In this document: positions 2,376 through 10,421 of the stretch, in pieces | How positions within the stretch are numbered: the stretch's first letter is position 1 | Layout of the letters: each line of letters begins with the position of its first letter | Assembly (NCBI GenBank): GCA_031254445.1 | Contig: JAIRUL010000056.1 | Span: forward strand, 1-10,421 | DNA length: 10,421 bases | Origin: Chitinispirillales bacterium | GTDB lineage: Bacteria; Fibrobacterota; Chitinivibrionia; Chitinivibrionales; Chitinispirillaceae | Reading direction: 5' to 3' | Translations under genes and position numbers: made by a program | The notes under the pieces: generated by a model | Seen by the model: the letters and a program-made list of their open reading frames with translations, nothing else | What the model was told of the DNA's origin: nothing | Database searches by the model: none

Positions 2376-2382
2376 CAACTCT

Positions 2383-3168
2383 TTATTTATATGTGTTTTG
2401 CCGATGCTCAATATCAATGATTTGATACCTTCCAGCGTTTATATCTTCCAGCCCAGCATCCAAGTCTTTTTCGAAAGCCATAATTTCTTTCATTTCTTCA
2501 TCATTCACAATATCGTTGGGAGGTGATGTTAATTTGCTTCGTATCAACCTTTCTACGTCGTCAATCTTATAATTGATAGACCGTATAGAAACATAAACGG
2601 ATGTTTCCGGCGGATCCGTAGAATCGGCCGGATACCTAGCTGGGTTTTCCAGCCAAATACACAAGCCCCGATCGGTTCGTTTTACTTCCCATATATCCTC
2701 CCAAACAATCAAGCGTTGATTTTTACCACCATTTGGAACGACAAGCCCGTCTTTTGAGATTTGCATAATTACCTTTGGCTTTATAAGCCTGATTATTGAC
2801 GCAATAAAACAATAACCAAAAAACAATATACATACAAATCCCAGAATATAGTCCTTCGGAGGCACATATCTCCAGCCGTCATGAAATAGGCGGCGAGGGG
2901 ACAAAATAAAGTAACCGCCAGCCACAAAGCACAAGCTGGCCAACATCGCAAAAACCATCGCGCCGCGCCTCACGGTAATTGTTATTATAATTTCGTCCTG
3001 TCCAATGCCCTTGTTTGCGCTTTTCTCAAGCGCAGACGTAAGCCAGCCTACGCCGACGACTATTAACAGCGCCGGCATACCTATCCAAAAAAGAAACTTT
3101 AGGTCTTTCGTTGCAACGACCACAACGATTGTCATAATTAGGATAAAATAGAGCCTTGGGTCTTTCAT
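2383..3168 (-). CDS. Four-helix membrane protein with C-terminal PH-like domain
   Basis: This 261-residue inner-membrane protein has four hydrophobic segments, at about residues 6-20, 23-44, 69-89 and 106-128. A soluble beta-rich segment follows (about 131-213), with the pattern K-V-I-M-Q-I-S-K-D-G-L and I-V-W-E-D-I-W-E-V that I associate with bacterial PH-like or STM3941-type membrane proteins. The tail, about 214-261, is acidic. The match is by style only and no enzymatic motif is visible; the function is unknown. It is the last gene of a minus-strand operon, 19 bp after the preceding gene. A GGGGGA stretch lies about 13 nt before the ATG, longer than ideal, so expression may depend on the upstream genes. 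It is visibly more AT-rich than recD2, which could reflect different ancestry. Confidence 0.8.
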   Translation of the reverse strand: MKDPRLYFILIMTIVVVVATKDLKFLFWIGMPALLIVVGVGWLTSALEKSANKGIGQDEIIITITVRRGAMVFAMLASLCFVAGGYFILSPRRLFHDGWRYVPPKDYILGFVCILFFGYCFIASIIRLIKPKVIMQISKDGLVVPNGGKNQRLIVWEDIWEVKRTDRGLCIWLENPARYPADSTDPPETSVYVSIRSINYKIDDVERLIRSKLTSPPNDIVNDEEMKEIMAFEKDLDAGLEDINAGRYQIIDIEHRQNTYK

Positions 3169-3187
3169 TGCGAGCTTATTTTCCCCC

Positions 3188-3757
3188 TTACATCTCCGAG
3201 AGCATCCTATTGTACTTCTCCACCCAAAACAGCTCGTGCGACAGGGATAGCACCGACAGCTTGTTTTCTTTCCGGTTGTAATAGAGCTCGGTAGCCAGAT
3301 TGTCGGCGTAGGGCTGGTTGTCGCAAATCGTCCCTGGGAACATGAACCCGTCGTTTTTGTCTAAAAAGGCGATGAGCCCCGCGTTTTTATAGTTTTCGTT
3401 GTCCCCGTGTATGAATGTCCGCAGCGCCGTCAAACCGACATAGATGGCGATGTCCTCCCGCAGGCGCTCGTTTTTAGTGAGCTTGGCGCACTTGTCAAGC
3501 CTCAAACCGTTTAGCGTGGAAACCATGAAAGCCGCGGAGCACTTGTGCCGATCCAACAACCCCGTCTTGATTCTCATGTAATTGGCCTTTGCGTAATTGC
3601 TGATGTCAACATAGCCGCGGAATAGGAAAGGTTTGGAACGCTCAAGGTCGCCGCTGAGGGCCAACCTAAGGGCGTCTTCCAAGGCGGAAGATCCCACTAG
3701 GTCTATTATGTCGTCGTAAAGGCTGTTAAAAGCTTTTTTATCAAGCACGGGCGTCAC
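3188..3757 (-). CDS. Conserved-looking hypothetical protein
   Basis: I do not recognise this 189-residue protein. It has no signal peptide or clear membrane segment and looks mostly alpha-helical. The middle (about residues 55-115) contains RIKTGLLDRHKCSAAF, LREDIAIYVGLTALRTFI and charged helices. A C-terminal part contains LSVLSLSHELFWVEKYNR. A Fic/Doc-like reading was considered because of the helical HKCSAAF region, but no HxFxDGNxR catalytic loop is present. It starts at GTG (3755-3757), which overlaps the TGA stop of the upstream gene in a GTGA arrangement with no Shine-Dalgarno, so translation is probably coupled to the 64-residue ORF. The gene lies in the middle of a three-gene minus-strand operon. 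Confidence 0.75.
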   Translation of the reverse strand: MTPVLDKKAFNSLYDDIIDLVGSSALEDALRLALSGDLERSKPFLFRGYVDISNYAKANYMRIKTGLLDRHKCSAAFMVSTLNGLRLDKCAKLTKNERLREDIAIYVGLTALRTFIHGDNENYKNAGLIAFLDKNDGFMFPGTICDNQPYADNLATELYYNRKENKLSVLSLSHELFWVEKYNRMLSEM

Positions 3758-4416: not shown

Positions 4417-4440
4417 ATGAATGCATCGCAGTGTCAAAAT

Positions 4441-4447
4441 GGGGAGG
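4441..4447 (+). promoter_or_regulatory. Ribosome binding site GGGGAGG deciding a GTG start
   Basis: GGGGAGG lies 5 nt before the GTG at 4453. The in-frame ATG at 4417, 36 nt upstream, has no Shine-Dalgarno. The site therefore argues for initiation at GTG 4453. Confidence 0.75.
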
Positions 4448-4452
4448 TTAGC

Positions 4453-5274
4453 GTGAATATACCTAGCGTATGTATGGGGCGTATAGGCGACTATATTAAG
4501 CAAACGCAGCTTAAAACCGCGTGGGAAAACAAAAAAGAGGGGCTATTTGCCCAGCCTAAGAAGGATAGCTTTGTCTCCTCGTTTATAAAGCAAAACGACG
4601 AAATGCAAAAAACCGTCAAACTTACGCAAATCGACAGCAAACTAAAATCCGGCCATAAGCTGTCGGGCGCGGAGATGGATTATTTAAGGGAAAACGCTCC
4701 GGAGTTATACAGACAAGCGTTAAAACTTGAAAAAGAACGCGAAGAATACCGCCGCGCGCTTGAAAATTGCAAAACAAAAGAAGAGGCGCAGCAGCTCCAT
4801 ATCACAAGAATGGCGGCTACGATGTCTGCTATAAAAGAAGCGTCTAAAGCCAAGGGCGGCGATGCGGTGCTTGTGCTCCAAATGCAATTAATGATGATGG
4901 TGAACGAGTTTAACGAGTTCGTGCAATCCGAAGAATACGCCGAAATGCCTAGCGTGTTTGATGCGGACGAAGAAGAAAAAGACGAACGCTCCGAAAAAAT
5001 AAAAGTTGAAAGCGGCGACGACGAGTTACCGCTTCAGACAGACGAATCTGGGCAGCAGGTATTTGATTCGATAGGCAGTTCGCCCGAAAACGCTAAACGG
5101 GGTAGTCCTAAATCGGATAGTCCTAAACCGGATAACCATAAATCAGATAGCCCTAAACCGGGTAACCATAAATCAGGAACAGTTAAAGCCGATAACGTCG
5201 GTTTTAAGAAAAGCGAAAGCGTTCGTGTTAGTGAAAGCCGCGTTACGGGGGGAGAATTTAAAAATGCGGTGTAG
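4453..5274 (+). CDS. Coiled-coil hypothetical protein with pentapeptide-repeat tail
   Basis: With the GTG start chosen by GGGGAGG the protein has 273 residues (285 from ATG 4417). It is cytoplasmic by appearance: no signal peptide and no clear membrane segment. The N-terminus starts MNIPSVCMGRIGDYIKQ. A lysine/glutamate-rich helical region (about 60-130) with KLKSGHKLSGAEMDYLRENA and LKLEKEREEYRRALENCKTK is probably coiled coil. A methionine-rich helix follows (about 145-162), then an acidic stretch. The tail has six pentapeptides of the type [S/N]-[P/H]-K-x-[D/G] (residues 218-247). The central region resembles uncharacterised clostridial hypothetical proteins that I recall only loosely, so no function is assigned. 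It is a single-gene unit followed directly by repeat DNA. Lower GC than the encapsulin operon may indicate separate origin. Confidence 0.75.
   Translation: MNIPSVCMGRIGDYIKQTQLKTAWENKKEGLFAQPKKDSFVSSFIKQNDEMQKTVKLTQIDSKLKSGHKLSGAEMDYLRENAPELYRQALKLEKEREEYRRALENCKTKEEAQQLHITRMAATMSAIKEASKAKGGDAVLVLQMQLMMMVNEFNEFVQSEEYAEMPSVFDADEEEKDERSEKIKVESGDDELPLQTDESGQQVFDSIGSSPENAKRGSPKSDSPKPDNHKSDSPKPGNHKSGTVKADNVGFKKSESVRVSESRVTGGEFKNAV
5104..5193 (+). repeat. 15-bp coding tandem repeat, 6 units
   Basis: Six in-frame pentapeptide units are present: SPKSD, SPKPD, NHKSD, SPKPG, NHKSG, TVKAD. The alternation of SPK and NHK units at the DNA level suggests duplication of a larger block. The tail is basic and probably disordered. 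Confidence 0.8.
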
Positions 5275-5340
5275 CGAAGATAACGTTTTCGGTCTCAAGT
5301 CAAAATCTTTAAAGCCTTTAAAAAATAAAAGTCAAAATTT

Positions 5341-5440
5341 TTAAAATTTTTTTCAGACGAAGCCTACGGCTTCATAACGTGTGGCGCAGAGCCGCCACAC
5401 AAAGTCAAAGTCAACATCAACATCAGAACCATCCTCACCG
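5341..5440 (-). repeat. Intergenic repeat element, copy B (inverted copy of A)
   Basis: The reverse complement agrees with positions 1-100 at 97 of 100 bases, and similarity continues with a gap for about 18 more bases into TTTTGACTTTT. It carries the same two hairpins in reverse order: GAAGCC-TAC-GGCTTC (5359-5373) and GTGTGGCG/CGCCACAC (5379-5400). Confidence 0.9.
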
Positions 5441-5445
5441 CCGCC

Positions 5446-5520
5446 TTTGACTTTGACTTTGTGTGGCGGCTTTAGCCGCCACACGTTATGAAGCCGTAGG
5501 CTTCGTCTGAAAAAGATTTA
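5446..5520 (+). repeat. Intergenic repeat element, copy C (head-to-head with B)
   Basis: This direct copy of element A's core has a variant first hairpin with a longer perfect stem, GTGTGGCGGC-TTTA-GCCGCCACAC (5461-5484), followed by the same GAAGCC-GTA-GGCTTC hairpin (5490-5504) and GTCTGAAAAAGATTTA. Together B (5341-5412) and C form a large inverted repeat around a loop of about 33 nt, so this locus could extrude a long cruciform. Confidence 0.9.
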
Positions 5521-5580
5521 AAAGAATTTGACTTTTATAGGTTTAGTCTGAAAAAGATTTAAAAGAATTTGATTTTAAAG
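5505..5580 (+). repeat. Direct repeat with 41-bp period
   Basis: The word GTCTGAAAAAGATTTAAAAG and the following AATTTGA occur at 5505-5531 and again at 5546-5572, with near-identical flanks. This duplicates the tail of the intergenic repeat. Confidence 0.8.
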
Positions 5581-5816: not shown

Positions 5817-5822
5817 AGGAGG
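5817..5822 (+). promoter_or_regulatory. Ribosome binding site AGGAGG of the encapsulin gene
   Basis: A perfect AGGAGG stands 7 nt before ATG 5830, fixing the encapsulin start and suggesting strong translation, as expected for a shell protein made in many copies. Confidence 0.9.
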
Positions 5823-5829
5823 AATTGCC

Positions 5830-6792
5830 ATGTCTAAGGAGTCCAAGGAGCTGAACTTGAACGCGCTCAACAAGGCGCAGGCCTACCAATTAGCCGATAT
5901 TGCCAAGACCCCGCCGCAGTTCGGCGCCATCACGCCGCGTTGGCTGACGCGCTTTTTGGAGTTCAAGGGGCTCTCGGCGGGCATATACAGGGTGAACAGG
6001 GTCGTGGAGGGGGAGACGCCGCTCGACGTTTTGTGCTCTGCGGAGAAGAAGAGCTTGGAGATTCCGGAGGGGTTCGTGGAGTACCAAGAGAAGCCGCGGG
6101 AGTACGTGCTGAACTCCATCTCCACCATTATCAACGTGGACACGGCGGTGGCGGACGTCTACTCTTCGCCGTTCGACCAGACGAAGGAGCAGCTCCATCT
6201 GGCGGTCGAGAGCCTCAAGGAGCGCCAGGAGAGCCAGATCATCAACAACGACGACTACGGGCTATTGAAGAACGCCGCGGCCTCGCAGCGCGTTACGCCC
6301 ATCAAGGGCGCGCCGATGCCGGACGACTTGGACGAGCTTTTAAGCAAGGTGTGGAAGGAGCCGTCGTTCTTCCTCGCGCACCCGCGGGCGATCGCGGCGT
6401 TCGAGCGCGAGTGCACGAGGCGCGGGGTGCCCCCGGTCACGGCGAACATCTACGGCGGGACGTTTATTTTGTGGCGCGGGGTCCCCATCGTGCCGACCGA
6501 CAAGCTGCTCGTGGATGGGCTTAAGAACCCCAAAAGCAAGGGCGGGAAGACGAACATCTTGCTAGTCCGCACGGGCGAGTCTAAGCGCGGGGTGGTGGGG
6601 CTGTACCAGTCGGCGGTGTCGGGGCTTTCGGGCGAGCAGTCGCGCGGGCTCTCCGTCCGCTTCAGGGGCGTTGACAACAAGGGGCTCGCCTCGTACCTGC
6701 TGTCTATGTACTGCTCGGCGGCGATACTTGCCGACGACTCGGTTGCGGTGCTGGAAGACGTGGAAGTGGGCGATTACTATGATTACCGCTGA
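5830..6792 (+). CDS. Family 2A encapsulin shell protein (SrpI-like, HK97 fold)
   Basis: Shell-forming protein of an encapsulin nanocompartment. The 320-residue sequence reads along the family 2A/SrpI type throughout: QLADIAKTPPQFGAITPRWL (20-39), SPFDQTKEQL (113-122), ERQESQIINNDDYGLL (131-146), PDDLDELL (164-171), FFLAHPRAIAAFERECTRRG (180-199), WRGVPI (215-220), LLVRTGE (244-250) and GLSVRF (273-278). There is no cyclic-nucleotide-binding insertion, which separates 2A from 2B encapsulins, and no phage portal, protease or terminase gene adjoins it. Family members assemble icosahedral shells in the cytosol around a cysteine desulfurase. The next gene encodes that enzyme and overlaps by 14 nt, strong support for the assignment. 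The start is fixed by AGGAGG. The protein looks complete. Known relatives are linked to sulfur metabolism and sulfur starvation, but nothing in the upstream DNA proves such regulation here. Confidence 0.95.
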   Translation: MSKESKELNLNALNKAQAYQLADIAKTPPQFGAITPRWLTRFLEFKGLSAGIYRVNRVVEGETPLDVLCSAEKKSLEIPEGFVEYQEKPREYVLNSISTIINVDTAVADVYSSPFDQTKEQLHLAVESLKERQESQIINNDDYGLLKNAAASQRVTPIKGAPMPDDLDELLSKVWKEPSFFLAHPRAIAAFERECTRRGVPPVTANIYGGTFILWRGVPIVPTDKLLVDGLKNPKSKGGKTNILLVRTGESKRGVVGLYQSAVSGLSGEQSRGLSVRFRGVDNKGLASYLLSMYCSAAILADDSVAVLEDVEVGDYYDYR

Positions 6793-8482
6793 GAGCTACG
6801 GCTTGCCGAGCGCACAGGAGCTGGAGGCGTGGGCGCAGGGGCTGTTTCCCGAGTGGGGGGAGGCCGCGGCTGGGCCGGAACCGCCTGAAGGCGCGGGGTA
6901 TGATACGCCGACAGGGTATGATCGGCCCGCAGGGTATGATTTGCCTGCGGGGTATGATCAGTCCATCGGGCACGATCATCTCGTAGGGTATGATCCCTCC
7001 GTCGGGCATGATAAATCCGCAGGGTATGATCCGTCTGTAGGGTATGACAAGCCTATAGGGTACGATCAACCCGTAGGATACAATCCGCCCGTAGCGCACA
7101 ATCCCTCCGCCGGATATAACCCGTCTGCGGCGGGGTACGGCCATCCTGCGGGGTACAATCCGCCCGTAGCGCATGACCCGTCCGGACGGCATAATGATCC
7201 CCCGGCCGCCGCCTATGCCCCGGTCGTCGTGCCGCATACCGCCATGCCGCCAGGGAGCGGCGCGGCATCCGGCTTCGACGTGAACCGCGTCCGCGCCGAC
7301 TTCCCCATACTGAGCGAGAGGCTGTCTAACGGCAAGCAGCTTATATGGCTCGACAACGGCGCGACCACGCAGAAGCCTCGGCAGGTGATAGAGCGCATCT
7401 CACGCTACTACGAGCACGAAAACTCGAATGTCCACAGGGGCGCGCACGAACTGGCGGCGCGCTCGACGGACGCCTACGAGGCGGCGCGGGAGACCGTCGC
7501 CAACTTCCTCGGCGCACCGTCTAAGGACAATATCGTCTTCGTGAGGGGGACGACGGAGGGCATAAACCTCGTGGCGCACAGCTACGTGCTGCCGCTCCTA
7601 GGCCCGGGCGACGAGATTATCCTCACCATGCTTGAGCACCACGCCAACATCGTGCCGTGGCAGATACTGGCGCAGGGGACGGGCGCGGTGATAAAGGTCG
7701 CGCCGGTCGATAAGACGGGGCAGATAATCCTGCCGGAGTACGAACGCCTCTTTAGCCCGCGCACAAAGTTCGCCTCCGTCACGCACGTGTCAAACGCCCT
7801 CGGGACGGTTACGCCCATTTGCGAAATGGTGCAGATAGCGCACCTCCACGGGGTCAGGATACTCGTCGACGGCGCGCAGTCGGTCGCGCACACGCCGCTG
7901 AACGTTACCGCGCTCGACGCCGATTTCTTTGTCTTCTCGGGGCACAAAATTTTCGCCCCCACCGGCATAGGCGCGGTGTACGGCAAGGGCGACGTTCTGG
8001 AGGCGGCGCGCCCGTATCAGGCCGGCGGGAACATGATTAAAGACGTAACCTTCGAGCGCACGGTGTACAACCCCGCGCCGAGCAAGTTCGAGGCCGGAAC
8101 GGGCAACATCGCCGACGCGATAGGCCTCGGCGCGGCGTTAGACTACGTCTCGCAAATCGGCCTGCCGAACATCGGCGCCTACGAGCACGGCCTCTTAGAC
8201 TACGCCACCCGCGAACTCGCCCGCATCCCCGGCCTGCGCATGATAGGCACGGCCGCCGAGAAGGCGAGCGCGCTCTCGTTCGTGCTTGACAATGCAAGCG
8301 TCGAGCAAGTAGGCAAGCATTTAGCAAACCACGGCATAGCCGTCCGCGCCGGCCACCACTGCGCGCAGCCCATCCTGCGCCACTTCGGGCTGGAGGCGAC
8401 GGTGAGGCCGACGATAGCGTTCTACAATACGCAGGAGGAAATAGACGCGCTTGCGCGGGCGGTTTGGGAGCTGGCGAAGTAG
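6779..8482 (+). CDS. Encapsulin cargo: SufS-type cysteine desulfurase with repeat-bearing N-terminal domain
   Basis: PLP enzyme that removes sulfur from cysteine, giving alanine and an enzyme persulfide; predicted to be packaged in the neighbouring shell. From ATG 6779 it has 567 residues. A short amphipathic segment (LPSAQELEAWAQGLFP, 9-24) is followed by a hexapeptide-repeat region (40-136), a Pro/Ala linker (137-164) and a full SufS/CsdA-like catalytic domain (about 165-567). Key residues are WLDNGATTQKP (190-200), HRGAHELAARST (219-230), LEHHAN (285-290, ring-stacking His region), VDGAQS (363-368, PLP Asp364), SGHK (387-390, Schiff-base Lys390) and RAGHHCAQP (523-531, catalytic Cys528). 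The frame stays open upstream to 6671, but that part only overlaps the shell gene and looks non-coding; ATG 6779 overlaps the shell stop by 14 nt, suggesting coupled translation. Family 2A cargo enzymes characteristically carry long disordered N-terminal extensions that direct loading. Confidence 0.93.
   Translation: MITAESYGLPSAQELEAWAQGLFPEWGEAAAGPEPPEGAGYDTPTGYDRPAGYDLPAGYDQSIGHDHLVGYDPSVGHDKSAGYDPSVGYDKPIGYDQPVGYNPPVAHNPSAGYNPSAAGYGHPAGYNPPVAHDPSGRHNDPPAAAYAPVVVPHTAMPPGSGAASGFDVNRVRADFPILSERLSNGKQLIWLDNGATTQKPRQVIERISRYYEHENSNVHRGAHELAARSTDAYEAARETVANFLGAPSKDNIVFVRGTTEGINLVAHSYVLPLLGPGDEIILTMLEHHANIVPWQILAQGTGAVIKVAPVDKTGQIILPEYERLFSPRTKFASVTHVSNALGTVTPICEMVQIAHLHGVRILVDGAQSVAHTPLNVTALDADFFVFSGHKIFAPTGIGAVYGKGDVLEAARPYQAGGNMIKDVTFERTVYNPAPSKFEAGTGNIADAIGLGAALDYVSQIGLPNIGAYEHGLLDYATRELARIPGLRMIGTAAEKASALSFVLDNASVEQVGKHLANHGIAVRAGHHCAQPILRHFGLEATVRPTIAFYNTQEEIDALARAVWELAK
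6896..7186 (+). repeat. About 16 hexapeptide repeats in the cargo N-terminal domain
   Basis: In-frame 18-bp units encode G-[Y/H]-[D/N]-x-[P/S]-x from residue 40 to 136, for example GYDTPT, GYDRPA, GYDLPA, GYDQSI, GHDHLV, GYDPSV and GYNPPV; late units diverge to AHNPSA, AHDPSG and one 7-residue unit. Synonymous codons differ between units (TAT/TAC, GAT/GAC, GGG/GGA), so the protein pattern is better conserved than the DNA. The segment is expected to be disordered, with an aromatic residue every six positions. Confidence 0.92.
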
Positions 8483-8488
8483 CGTGGA

Positions 8489-8577
8489 TTTTTTTCGCGT
8501 CGTGAAGCGATGCATCCCCCCGAAGGGCGTGGCTCCGGCGGGGGAAACATCCTTCAGGGGGGCGGCGCGAAAAAAAA
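8489..8577. other. Large A/T-flanked palindromic stem-loop
   Basis: The outer arms are TTTTTTTCGCG (8489-8499) and CGCGAAAAAAA (8566-8576). An inner stem pairs CCCCCCGAAGG (8516-8526) with CCTTC-A-GGGGGG (8551-8562), with a single bulged A. In both directions the U-run would precede and the A-run follow the stem, so it is not a standard intrinsic terminator. It could be an intergenic repeat, a structured RNA or an RNA-end-stabilising hairpin after the cargo gene. Confidence 0.6.
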
Positions 8578-8588
8578 TAACAATACCC

Positions 8589-8618
8589 TTGCGCTGGGGC
8601 TACGCCGTAACATATACT
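8589..8618 (+). promoter_or_regulatory. Candidate promoter of the toxin-antitoxin pair
   Basis: A weak -35 TTGCGC (8589-8594) is 18 nt before TATACT (8613-8618), a five-of-six match to the -10 consensus. It lies about 50 nt before the GTG at 8670. Only the -10 box is convincing. Confidence 0.35.
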
Positions 8619-8669
8619 TAAATGTCAGTCGAATCCAAATTAATAATGGTTGATTTATAGGATGTAACA

Positions 8670-8918
8670 GTGAATTTTGAGATTAAATGTAGCCGCTCTG
8701 CTTTTAAGCATGGGCTAATAGAAGCCGATATTCTGTGGGCGTTTCAAACAATAGAATACGACGCCATGTTGGAAGAATATGCAGGTAAGCATCTGCTTAT
8801 TGGTTTTGACAAGAGCGCGAATTTGATTGAGGTTTTGTATAATGTTATTGATGATAATACAGTTTTGGTTTTTCACGCGATGAAATGCCGCCCGGCGTTT
8901 ATTGCATTGATAAAATAA
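8670..8918 (+). CDS. BrnT/DUF4258-like toxin of a toxin-antitoxin pair
   Basis: This 82-residue protein has the small RelE-like toxin pattern found in BrnT and DUF4258-type proteins: a basic N-terminus with AFKHGL (11-16), a helix with DILWAF (20-25), a strand pair HLLIGFDKSANLIEVLYNVI (41-60), and a C-terminal VLVFHAMKCRPAF (65-77). Such toxins generally act as ribonucleases, but I see no specific proof here. It starts at GTG, with AGGAT 7 nt upstream. The partner gene begins 13 bp downstream, giving the toxin-first order seen in brnTA. More AT-rich than the desulfurase gene before it, it may be part of a transferred module. The symbol is withheld because assignment to BrnT proper is not certain. 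Confidence 0.75.
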   Translation: MNFEIKCSRSAFKHGLIEADILWAFQTIEYDAMLEEYAGKHLLIGFDKSANLIEVLYNVIDDNTVLVFHAMKCRPAFIALIK

Positions 8919-8931
8919 GGAGAGAGAGGCT

Positions 8932-9153
8932 ATGAACGAAGAAGAATACGACGCCTTAGACGAGTTGCTGACAAAAACAACCCCCAAGGTTGGCGCGAAC
9001 GGGACAGGCTTCGTGAGCAAACGAAACGCCAAGCTGTTTGGCCTAGACGACCTTTCAATAGACTATCTTTACACCAAATCGCTAGCAACTCGTAAAAGCC
9101 CGGCGGAAATCATCGGCGGAATGGTGCGGGAAAAAATAGCGGTCGGCGATTAA
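8932..9153 (+). CDS. Ribbon-helix-helix-like antitoxin
   Basis: This 73-residue acidic protein probably neutralises the preceding toxin and autoregulates the pair. The N-terminus is acidic (EEEYDALDELL). The middle holds a short polar segment, GTGFVSKRNAKLFGLDDL. The C-terminal SLATRKSPAEIIGGMVREKI resembles the helical end of CopG/BrnA-like antitoxins, where a ribbon-helix-helix or dimerisation element sits. The basis is pattern resemblance to spirochaete antitoxins plus operon position, not a motif that proves function. A purine-rich GGAGAGAGAGG stretch precedes ATG 8932 and serves as ribosome binding site. The stop lies only 5 bp from the stop of the convergent gene. Confidence 0.75.
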   Translation: MNEEEYDALDELLTKTTPKVGANGTGFVSKRNAKLFGLDDLSIDYLYTKSLATRKSPAEIIGGMVREKIAVGD

Positions 9154-9158
9154 ACCGC

Positions 9159-9689
9159 CTATCTCAACCCCACATCCCTAAGAGGTATCCGCGCCGTATA
9201 CTGGGTGAGAACTTGCGCGGTCGACACATCATAGGCCTGCAACCTTAGCTGGCAGAACCCAGCGAAACGGACGAGCGCTCCGCCTACTACCATTTTCGCC
9301 CCCAAATAGCCGCCGAGGCCAGCTATGGACGAGTCGCTCACGCTGCCCGACATCTGGAAGCTGTGCTCGGCGGAGACCGCGTCCTGCGCCGCGCCGGCGC
9401 GGCGCTCCAAGACTACGAACTTGCCGCTGGCGAAGAGGCGGGCGGAAAGCTCGCCGGTTAGGAATTCCGATACGGCGGGGGCCGGGGCATCGATTTGGGA
9501 TACGGCGATTTCTAACTTTCCCGCCCCCTGCGCCTTCGAGGCGATGTCGGAGACAGCGGCGGTTAAGGCGGCGTCTAGGCTGACTAGACCCGGAGCCGAC
9601 TTGGCAGAGGGGGCGCACACGGCATGGGCGGCGAGCGCGATGGCTATGGGTAACAAAAGGCTTTTTGCTGCGGGAAATAGGTTGCTCAC
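9159..9689 (-). CDS. Secreted LpoB/CsgG-like protein
   Basis: This 176-residue exported protein begins with a signal peptide: MSNLFPAAKS and the hydrophobic LLLPIAIALAAHAVCA (11-26). Cleavage after HAVCA is plausible; Cys25 is not in a canonical lipobox but spirochaete lipoboxes are loose, so lipidation is possible. The mature part follows the CsgG/LpoB pattern: KLEIAVSQID (58-67), SEFLTGELSARLFASGKFVVLERR (74-97, an N-terminal domain with a two-strand/one-helix alternation), SFQMSGSVSDSSIAGLGGYL (110-129) and GAKMVVGGALVRFAGFCQLRLQAYDV. Such proteins bind periplasmic partners; the exact role here is unknown. GTG 9687-9689 is the start, with AAGGGG 6 nt before it. It follows the TPR gene by 28 bp on the same strand, probably in one transcript. 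Confidence 0.75.
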   Translation of the reverse strand: MSNLFPAAKSLLLPIAIALAAHAVCAPSAKSAPGLVSLDAALTAAVSDIASKAQGAGKLEIAVSQIDAPAPAVSEFLTGELSARLFASGKFVVLERRAGAAQDAVSAEHSFQMSGSVSDSSIAGLGGYLGAKMVVGGALVRFAGFCQLRLQAYDVSTAQVLTQYTARIPLRDVGLR

Positions 9690-9717
9690 TTTTTACCCCT
9701 TTGTTACACGTTGCCTT

Positions 9718-10421
9718 TTAACGCTTTTGCATTTCGCGGCGAGCGAGTTCTATGTTTTTCCGAGCATCAGCATTATTAGGATCAATACGTAACACGGCTT
9801 CCCAATCCGCGATGGCTCTGTTGTAGTCGCCTTTACGGTAATAGGCATCGCCGCGATTGCTCAGAGCCTCGTAGTAATCCGGTTTAATTTTCAAAGCGGC
9901 GTTATAGTCCGCGATGGCTCTGTCATAGTCGCCCTTGTTGAAATACGCATTGCCGCGATTGTTCAGAGCCTCGTAGTCATCCGGCTTAATTTTCAAAGCG
10001 GCACTATAGTCCGCGATGGCTCTGTCGTAGTCGTCTTTGTCGAAATACGCATTGCCGCGATTGAGTAGAGCCTCGTAGTCATCCGGTTTAATTTTCAAAG
10101 CGGCGCTATAGTCCGGGATGGCTCTGTCATAGTCGCCTTTGTCGAAATACGCAACGCCGCGATTGAGTAGAGCCTCGTAGCCATCCGGCTTAATTTTCAA
10201 AGCGGCGTTATAGTCCGCGAAGGCTCTGTCGTAGTCGCCTTTGTTGTGATAGACATTGCCGCGATTGCTCAGAGCCACGTAGTGATCCGGCTTAATTTTC
10301 AAAGCGGCGTTATAGTCCACGATGGCTCTGTCGTAGTCGCCCTTTCTGAAATAGGCCACGCCGCGATTGCACAGAGCCTCGTAGTAATCCGGCTTAATTT
10401 TCAAAGCGGCGATAAAGTCCG
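9718..10421 (-). CDS. TPR repeat protein, 5' end outside the window
   Basis: Tetratricopeptide-repeat scaffold protein; the reading frame is still open at the right edge, so the true N-terminus lies beyond it and the nearest start-like codon (TTG at 10402-10404) sits inside a repeat. About 233 residues are visible. Six complete 34-residue TPRs of the form NRGxAYFxKGDYDRAIxDYxAALKIKPDxYEAL can be read, with a partial one before them. The last unit diverges (NRAIADWEAVLRIDPNNADA) and a short capping helix NIELARREMQKR ends the protein. Units are nearly identical in DNA (102-bp period), typical of recent duplication. TPR arrays mediate protein binding, but no partner is shown. It precedes the LpoB-like gene by 28 bp on the same strand, so the two may be cotranscribed. 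Confidence 0.92.
   Translation of the reverse strand, partial: DFIAALKIKPDYYEALCNRGVAYFRKGDYDRAIVDYNAALKIKPDHYVALSNRGNVYHNKGDYDRAFADYNAALKIKPDGYEALLNRGVAYFDKGDYDRAIPDYSAALKIKPDDYEALLNRGNAYFDKDDYDRAIADYSAALKIKPDDYEALNNRGNAYFNKGDYDRAIADYNAALKIKPDYYEALSNRGDAYYRKGDYNRAIADWEAVLRIDPNNADARKNIELARREMQKR
9770..10421 (-). repeat. 102-bp coding tandem repeats (TPR units)
   Basis: Six full 102-bp units plus a partial one run to the window edge. They share long near-identical blocks, for example TTAATTTTCAAAGCGGC recurring on the plus strand at about 9883, 9985, 10087, 10189, 10291 and 10393. The spacing is exactly 102 bp, so assembly collapse and copy-number change are real possibilities. Confidence 0.9.

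What the first reader, a model, noticed from the sequence alone, without database searches (positions are those of the whole stretch)
5830..8482. Two-gene family 2A encapsulin / cysteine desulfurase nanocompartment operon in a probable spirochaete
An SrpI-like shell gene directly overlaps a SufS-type desulfurase with a long disordered extension, the known family 2A cargo arrangement. The sequence shows both gene types and all catalytic residues (Lys390, Cys528). Family knowledge says such shells encapsulate the desulfurase, with reported sulfur storage. The host assignment and the lack of other sulfur genes (rhodanese, serine acetyltransferase) nearby make this a minimal version worth characterising.
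Basis: partly seen in the sequence, partly recalled or inferred. Interest (0 to 1): 0.8.

Follow-up and report, generated by a model that had tools for sequence, protein, structure and literature searches.

The report
Gut bacterial sulfur nanocompartment, split operon
A gut bacterium of the Fibrobacterota (not a spirochaete) carries a two-gene protein nanocompartment that probably encloses a cysteine-splitting enzyme; in many close relatives the same gene pair sits in a larger cluster that looks able to turn the freed sulfur back into cysteine.

Summary
The gene pair is real. The shell (5830-6792) is a family 2A encapsulin: NCBIfam NF041162 466.7 bits, cut-off 380. It overlaps by 14 nt a SufS-type cysteine desulfurase (ATG 6779 to 8482, 567 aa) with Lys390 and Cys528. 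The spirochaete assignment is wrong: RecD2 on the same contig is 76-78% identical to two Fibrobacterota genomes and has no match in 11 of 11 spirochaete genomes searched. New here: (1) the cargo's N-terminal arm has a helical motif, about 16 GYDxPx-like hexapeptides seen in no other cargo examined, then YAPVVVP; the database gene call misses this arm. (2) The shell belongs to a clade spread over nine phyla, with an insertion in 81 of 81. (3) In 62 of 81 loci the shell neighbours an E1-like (mostly E1-rhodanese) enzyme, often with a JAMM protease, a cysteine synthase and CysE, resembling CysO/MoeZ/CysM/Mec+ cysteine synthesis on a protein thiocarboxylate. Of 46 loci with 3 kb or more before the shell and after its end, only the window has none of these; its genome keeps cysE-cysM-JAB on another contig. 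Known kind, new variant. Particle formation and sulfur storage were not testable here.

The parts
5817..5822 (+). Shine-Dalgarno-like AGGAGG of the shell gene
   Evidence: read directly from the sequence, 7 nt before ATG 5830
5830..6792 (+). family 2A encapsulin shell protein, 320 aa
   Evidence: NF041162 466.7 bits (cut-off 380), PF19307 303.7 bits; SrpI 6x8m 363 bits; pore residues RRGVPP and the F and Y that lie near SrpI's cargo density are kept
6779..8482 (+). SufS-type cysteine desulfurase, predicted cargo, 567 aa, likely start overlapping the shell stop by 14 nt
   Evidence: an in-frame start codon lies before the shell stop in 73 of 74 loci with a cargo (start chosen mechanically there)
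6797..6856 (+). motif 1 of the cargo arm, YGLPSAQELEAWAQGLFPEW (aa 7-26), predicted loading tag; helix 12-22 in the model
   Evidence: pattern in 65 of 74 cargo arms, shuffled mean 0.8, maximum 4 (pattern written after seeing the sequences); helix, pLDDT 79 for aa 11-20
6896..7186 (+). hexapeptide tandem repeat, about 16 units of G-Y/H-D/N-x-P/S-x (aa 40-136), disordered linker
   Evidence: 13 G[YH][DN] triplets here, at most 1 in the other 73 locus cargos, at most 2 in the 119 other best database homologues; pLDDT under 50 for aa 30-164
7214..7234 (+). motif 2 of the cargo arm, YAPVVVP (aa 146-152)
   Evidence: pattern in 61 of 74 cargo arms, shuffled mean 4.2, maximum 15
7946..7948 (+). codon of Lys390, PLP-binding lysine
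   Evidence: SGHK motif; invariant in alignment A2 of 30
8360..8362 (+). codon of Cys528, catalytic cysteine
   Evidence: RAGHHC motif; invariant in alignment A2 of 30

Best explanation
The locus encodes a family 2A encapsulin shell and its overlapping cysteine desulfurase cargo in a gut Fibrobacterota. Shown by sequence: shell family, cargo enzyme family, catalytic residues, overlap, a predicted-disordered cargo arm with a conserved helical motif at its tip. Inferred from studied relatives: 60 shell copies form a cage, the arm holds the enzyme inside, cysteine enters through the fivefold pore, and the enzyme splits it to alanine and sulfane sulfur that is held in or on the particle. Inferred from gene order in relatives: that sulfur is passed to a rhodanese-E1 enzyme, loaded on a GG carrier as a thiocarboxylate, and rebuilt into cysteine (or, with MetY, homocysteine) by a cysteine synthase with acetylserine from CysE, a JAMM protease releasing the product. 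In the window's genome this second half is only partly present (cysE-cysM-JAB on another contig; no E1-rhodanese found).
For: Shell and cargo models and structure matches. Overlapping pair in 73 of 74 loci with a cargo. Arm motifs in 65 and 61 of 74. E1 relative near the shell in 62 of 81 loci, starting 1.5-3.0 kb before the shell's end on the same strand in 58; JAB 52, CysK/M 50, CysE 50 of 81, each with at least one copy on the shell's strand; MetY 29, in 24 on that strand. JAMM motif in 56 of 56 JAB ORFs. PAIAGG-type carrier in 52 of 80 relatives: 25 fused to the E1, 13 ending there, 14 with a short tail after the GG. Own-genome cysE-cysM-JAB in the order of L015 and L002. Loading by the N-terminal arm and a sevenfold rate gain in the S. 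elongatus homologue: passages of PMC8049743.
Against: The cargo is below the cut-off of NCBI's cargo model (776.3 against 800) because only its catalytic part aligns. The second arm motif of the S. elongatus family, AASPYYFLDG, is not present. The shell structure prediction failed (mean pLDDT 33.9). No E1-rhodanese was found in the own genome beyond a 30% match over 110 residues to another protein; the genome is about 70% complete. CysE hits in the own genome are below the cysE model's cut-off (168.5 and 166.6 against 210.65), as are those of the relatives tested, which pass EpsC instead; the relatives' cysteine synthase is below the cut-offs of cysM and cysK models. In 14 relatives the carrier's GG is followed by a short tail.
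Confidence: 0.72

Rival explanations
1. The compartment does not store sulfur for cysteine synthesis; it confines a reactive desulfurase so that only one chosen acceptor can take the persulfide (channelling or redox protection).
For: PMC8346489 proposes such channelling to a co-regulated rhodanese (passages); an E1-rhodanese is the commonest neighbour of those sought here (62 of 81).
Against: The neighbours include a whole set for making cysteine or homocysteine, not a rhodanese alone (48 of 81 loci have E1, JAB and CysK/M or MetY). Storage and channelling are not exclusive.
Confidence: 0.3
2. The desulfurase works as an ordinary SufS for iron-sulfur cluster assembly and the shell is incidental.
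For: It matches the SufS family model above cut-off (511.5 against 475.1).
Against: No SufB/SufD gene in the own genome although the same search rings in 14 of 14 controls (genome about 70% complete); a NifU gene and an IscS/NifS-type desulfurase are present elsewhere (the IscS/NifS type is my reading of the sequence).
Confidence: 0.07
3. The repeat arm is not translated; the desulfurase starts at ATG 7244 (412 aa) and stays outside the shell.
For: The protein database holds this protein as 412 aa (P0121), and one relative, P0172, is 412 aa with no motif 1.
Against: The frame is open from before the shell stop; motif 1 and motif 2 stand in frame at both ends of the repeat as in most relatives; the third codon position varies most between repeat units, though the contrast is modest (positions 1, 2, 3: 0.36, 0.26, 0.44).
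Confidence: 0.07

Closest known systems
SrpI/CyD family 2A encapsulin of Synechococcus elongatus (plasmid pANL)
   Same: Shell 55% identical over 97%; SufS-type cargo with disordered N-terminal arm; arm motif 1 resembles LARLANEFFS of PMC8049743.
   Different: Shell has an 8-residue insertion (in VDGLKNPKSKGGKT) and a 3-residue one (SAV); genes overlap instead of being 234 bp apart; arm of about 160 aa made largely of hexapeptide repeats; YAPVVVP in place of AASPYYFLDG; no cysK, epsC or rhodanese beside it, which S. elongatus has.
Aliarcobacter cibarius plasmid pACIB encapsulin cluster
   Same: Shell 68% identical with the same 8-residue insertion; overlapping shell and cargo.
   Different: Rhodanese, MoaD/ThiS-type protein, cysE and cysK annotated around the pair on a mobilizable plasmid; the window has none.
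CysO/MoeZ/CysM/Mec+ cysteine synthesis of mycobacteria
   Same: Relatives' cluster has a GG carrier, E1-rhodanese, cysteine synthase and JAMM protease.
   Different: That pathway as described (passages of PMC3227635) uses phosphoserine and names no sulfur source; here CysE points to acetylserine and a predicted encapsulated desulfurase is the neighbour. Not filed as the same pathway.

Membership tests
family 2A encapsulin shell | scores above the curated cut-off of NF041162 over its whole length | tested here: met
   466.7 bits against 380, positions 1-295 of 295
family 2A encapsulin shell | no cNMP-binding domain (that would make it 2B) | tested here: met
   320 aa; 2B model 361.4 below cut-off 400 and matched only over residues 61-314; one Pfam family only
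family 2A encapsulin shell | HK97 fold | tested here: inconclusive
   55% identity over the length of SrpI, whose solved structure has the fold; own prediction failed, pLDDT 33.9
family 2A encapsulin shell | forms a T=1 particle | not testable with these tools
   needs expression and electron microscopy
family 2A cargo cysteine desulfurase | gene next to the shell, SufS-type domain with both catalytic residues | tested here: met
family 2A cargo cysteine desulfurase | scores above the cut-off of NF041166 | tested here: not met
   776.3 against 800; only model positions 219-623 of 623 align. By this model it is not filed as a member, though it is placed like one
family 2A cargo cysteine desulfurase | long disordered N-terminal arm | tested here: met
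   aa 30-164 below pLDDT 50 in a model from 30 sequences
family 2A cargo cysteine desulfurase | arm motifs LARLANEFFS and AASPYYFLDG, found in most members (PMC8049743) | tested here: not met
   first present in a degenerate form (ELEAWAQGLFPE); second absent, YAPVVVP in its place
family 2A cargo cysteine desulfurase | is loaded into the shell | not testable with these tools
   needs co-purification
CysO-type thiocarboxylate cysteine synthesis (relatives' cluster) | E1-rhodanese activator | tested here: met
   E1 relative in 62 of 81 loci; rhodanese active-site loop in 61 of 77 E1 ORFs
CysO-type thiocarboxylate cysteine synthesis (relatives' cluster) | carrier with C-terminal GG | tested here: inconclusive
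   carrier in 52 of 80 relatives; GG terminal (within 2 residues) in 13, fused before the E1 in 25, followed by a short tail in 14, so many would need cleavage after the GG
CysO-type thiocarboxylate cysteine synthesis (relatives' cluster) | JAMM protease | tested here: met
   HxHx7SxxD in 56 of 56 JAB ORFs of 52 loci
CysO-type thiocarboxylate cysteine synthesis (relatives' cluster) | CysM above its curated cut-off | tested here: not met
   L010 319.1 and L015 319.8 bits against 394.2
CysO-type thiocarboxylate cysteine synthesis (window's genome) | all parts present | tested here: not met
   cysE-like, cysM-like and JAB on C279; E1-rhodanese not found in this about 70% complete genome

The most novel reading that the evidence does not exclude
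In this gut clade the encapsulin is the deposit box of a closed cysteine-sulfur cycle: the encapsulated desulfurase turns surplus cysteine into alanine and stored sulfane sulfur, and the neighbouring E1-rhodanese, GG carrier, cysteine (or homocysteine) synthase and JAMM protease turn it back, the encapsulin being the sulfur source of a protein-thiocarboxylate pathway. The set moves between phyla in animal guts, and the window's organism has split it in two.
Probability: 0.35. Interest if true: 0.75.

Novelty: new variant of a known kind. Interest (0 to 1): 0.5.

Why it matters
Family 2A encapsulins are known to enclose a cysteine desulfurase, but, as far as I know (recall), what the freed sulfur is for is not settled. 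The clade around this window often puts shell and cargo in a run with the parts of a protein-thiocarboxylate route to cysteine or homocysteine, which names a concrete sulfur acceptor that can be tested. It also offers a sulfur source for such pathways, which PMC3227635 (2011; passages seen) called unknown for mycobacterial MoeZR. [quoted passage not shown]

Tried and rejected
Spirochaete host: rejected. 16S rRNA of the own genome: none found (that search also misses it in 5 of 14 controls), so the host rests on RecD2 and on the genome search's kinship labels. Shell structure prediction from 35 close relatives failed (pLDDT 33.9) and was not used; no fold search was run. The search with the repeat region alone gave no hit, but it did not return the window's own protein either (the database holds it without the arm), so it is not evidence of uniqueness; I rely on 73 other locus cargos and the 119 other best homologues, some of which may be cut short by gene callers too. 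One-clade descent of the Fibrobacterota shells is rejected (p-AU 7.9e-5; without the long row L051 0.003), but for the desulfurase domain it is not (p 0.27, L051 left out), and the desulfurase tree does not join the window to its two same-genus relatives, which group with L002 instead; so cross-phylum transfer of the pair is likely, not proven. SufS role in iron-sulfur assembly considered and thought unlikely. The arm motif patterns were written after looking at the sequences, and related sequences are counted singly. RecD2 is joined to the operon across a 216-bp repeat with many copies in the genome, so a mis-join of the contig cannot be excluded; the shell tree still places the window beside its two same-genus relatives (98/68, not starred).
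Full report
What is there. The window is contig C298 of a 1.97-Mb, 301-contig genome, about 70% complete. The shell gene 5830-6792 and the desulfurase gene 6779-8482 are real and overlap by 14 nt. The shell passes the family 2A model (466.7 bits, cut-off 380) and not the 2B model (361.4, cut-off 400), matches Pfam SrpI-like, and is 55% identical to SrpI over 97% of its length (structure entries). SrpI's pore stretch RRGVPP (with R192, G194, P196) and its F262 and Y273, which the SrpI paper places near the cargo density (PMC8049743, passages), are kept in the window. The desulfurase passes the SufS model (511.5, cut-off 475.1) and its best match among solved structures is 8kg1 (570.5 bits). Against membership: it falls short of NCBI's cargo model (776.3 against 800), whose first 218 positions do not align.

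Host. Of 24 genomes searched with the RecD2 protein of the same contig, those of L015 (Chitinispirillales bacterium) and L012 (Fibrobacteria bacterium GUT77) match at 78% and 76%; the other matches, including those in other Fibrobacterota, are 44% or lower, and 11 of 11 spirochaete genomes have none (one further spirochaete locus, L041, was not held; these are draft genomes). In the search of 60 genomes (the own one among them) the handles G030 and G027 are labelled 'same genus'; their loci L088 and L089 are 100% identical to L012 and L015 over the aligned stretches. Of seven other genomes of the genus, three have the shell.

The cargo arm. The arm from Met1 to about residue 160 is missing from the database's gene call, which starts at residue 156, ATG 7244 (P0121, 412 aa). 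It has motif 1 (aa 7-26), predicted as a short helix, then a stretch with pLDDT under 50 (aa 30-164), then the catalytic domain (mean pLDDT of that model 68.2). Between motif 1 and motif 2 (YAPVVVP) lie about 16 hexapeptides of the form G-Y/H-D/N-x-P/S-x. Thirteen G[YH][DN] triplets occur here; the other 73 locus cargos have at most one, and of the 119 other best database homologues one has two and none has three. Other relatives carry other repeats (P0137, P0166, P0216, P0229, P0237; by eye) or almost no linker (P0123). Linker length, where both patterns were found in order (55 of 74 cargos), runs from 15 to 155 residues, the window 126. I read this as a conserved tag and docking motif with a freely changing spacer.

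The clade. A scan of the 84,980 species genomes with peptide patterns of the shell found 285 relatives; the best 80 were kept. By title they fall in nine phyla: Bacillota 27, Spirochaetota 22, Fibrobacterota 9, Thermodesulfobacteriota 6, Lentisphaerota 5, Planctomycetota 4, Synergistota 3, Campylobacterota 1, Pseudomonadota 1, and 2 without a phylum. Titles name a ruminant gut compartment in 16 of 80; the codes Co191 and Th196 occur in a paper on genomes from the gut of higher termites (PMC7024585, search listing only); other isolate codes I take from recall to be termite or rumen projects. All 81 shells (window and 80) carry the insertion pattern VDGxKxP, as does Aliarcobacter cibarius; S. 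elongatus, Azospirillum, Variovorax and Methylosinus do not. In the shell tree the window stands with its two same-genus relatives (98/68, not starred) inside a starred group of 17 rows: Fibrobacterota 8, Spirochaetota 6, one beta-proteobacterium, one campylobacterium and the window. The desulfurase tree (70 rows with enough sequence) has the same group (14 rows, 100/99), less the three rows without a neighbouring desulfurase, but within it L012 and L015 group with L002, not with the window. The shell data reject a single Fibrobacterota clade (p-AU 7.9e-5, or 0.003 without L051); the desulfurase data do not (0.27, L051 left out).

The wider cluster. Within about 6 kb of the shell, 62 of 81 loci have an E1-like adenylyltransferase relative, in 58 of 81 starting 1.5-3.0 kb before the shell's end on its strand, that is next to it; the rhodanese active-site loop is seen in 61 of the 77 E1 ORFs. 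52 loci have a JAB protease, 50 a CysK/M-type synthase, 50 CysE, 29 a MetY-type enzyme; each of the first four has at least one copy on the shell's strand in every such locus, MetY in 24. NCBIfam and Pfam name the parts in L010, L015, L028 and L043; the cysE hits pass the EpsC model but not the cysE one, and the synthases stay below the cysM, cysK and cysKM cut-offs. A PAIAGG-type carrier is found in 52 of 80 relatives: 25 fused before the E1, 13 ending within two residues of the GG, 14 with a short tail. 56 of 56 JAB ORFs have the JAMM motif. These are the parts of the mycobacterial CysO pathway (PMC3227635, passages), and with MetY they recall thiocarboxylate-dependent homocysteine synthesis (recall, no call). 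Of 46 loci with at least 3 kb before the shell and 3 kb after its end, only the window has none of these genes; four more loci with none (L012, L017, L035, L046) have short flanks. L002 has shell, desulfurase, CysE, CysM, JAB and carrier-E1-rhodanese in one run. In the window's genome a cysE-like gene, cysM (82% to L015) and JAB (65%) sit together on C279, in the order seen in L015 and L002; no carrier-E1-rhodanese was found. So the two-gene locus is best seen as one half of a split cluster, with the caveat of an incomplete genome.

In print. One of the two studies of the family that I looked into mentions serine acetyltransferase and rhodanese neighbours (PMC8346489, passages). Searches for encapsulin with thiocarboxylate or with sulfur carrier protein found 0 papers, and with MoeB one paper, on imaging tags by its title; none of 19 papers listed for CysO-pathway terms mentions encapsulin; searches for encapsulin with termite or rumen found nothing on point by their titles. 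The library holds open-licence papers only, so this is weak evidence of novelty. That family 2A particles store elemental sulfur is recall; the paper I had in mind is not held.

How it most likely works. Shown: the protein families, catalytic residues, overlap, arm architecture, gene order. Inferred: assembly, loading by the helical tip, conversion of cysteine to alanine and sulfane sulfur inside, and, in relatives with the cluster, return of that sulfur to cysteine or homocysteine by way of a carrier thiocarboxylate. The identity of the locus is nearly certain; the storage role is about even; the closed cycle I put at about one in three.

Noticed in passing
window 5325-5540: A 216-nt near-perfect palindrome (62-nt arms 94% complementary, predicted -140 kcal/mol as RNA) about 290 nt upstream of the shell gene. 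40 places in the 1.97-Mb genome match it, its own included (101 rows, both orientations; only 40 of 336 first-look candidates were scored, so a lower bound), several at contig ends. MITE-like or REP-like; may break or mis-join the assembly.
   Followed up: partly
L013 shell 8001-8954, L019 shell 2377-3312, L017 shell 8001-8924: Three Fibrobacterota shells with open frames and no desulfurase next to them (L017's contig ends 647 nt later); L013 and L019 have a cysK-type gene upstream, and L019 lies in the same genome (Nx346_bin45) as the complete pair L002. Possible second shell component or shell loaded in trans.
   Followed up: partly
P0172 (412 aa) and P0123 (444 aa): P0172 is a close relative of the cargo without motif 1; P0123 has motif 1 joined nearly directly to motif 2. 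Natural test cases for the loading tag.
   Followed up: no
L103 (Aliarcobacter cibarius pACIB): Plasmid typed as mobilizable carrying rhodanese, shell, cargo, cysE and cysK with insertion-sequence transposases upstream: a possible vehicle for the spread of the cluster.
   Followed up: no
window 9159-10419 (-) and L115 3-1223 (-): LpoB/CsgG-like (weak matches) plus TPR-repeat genes, 54-77% identical in parts, lie near the shell pair and near the split-off cysE-cysM-JAB block; repeats of this kind could have mediated the split.
   Followed up: no
window 4417-5274 (+) and L002 7380-7829 (-): An ORF with a repetitive KSDSPKPDNH tail and no family match has a 35% identical counterpart just upstream of the shell in L002.
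   Followed up: no
window 8670-8918 and 8932-9153 (+): Two small adjacent ORFs without Pfam or NCBIfam matches, arranged like a toxin-antitoxin pair.
   Followed up: no
window shell residues 261-263 (6610-6618): A three-residue insertion (SAV, in QSAVSGLSGEQ) in the shell, seen in no other of the 81 shells by the pattern used; L012, L015 and P0074 have other insertions in the same loop.
   Followed up: no
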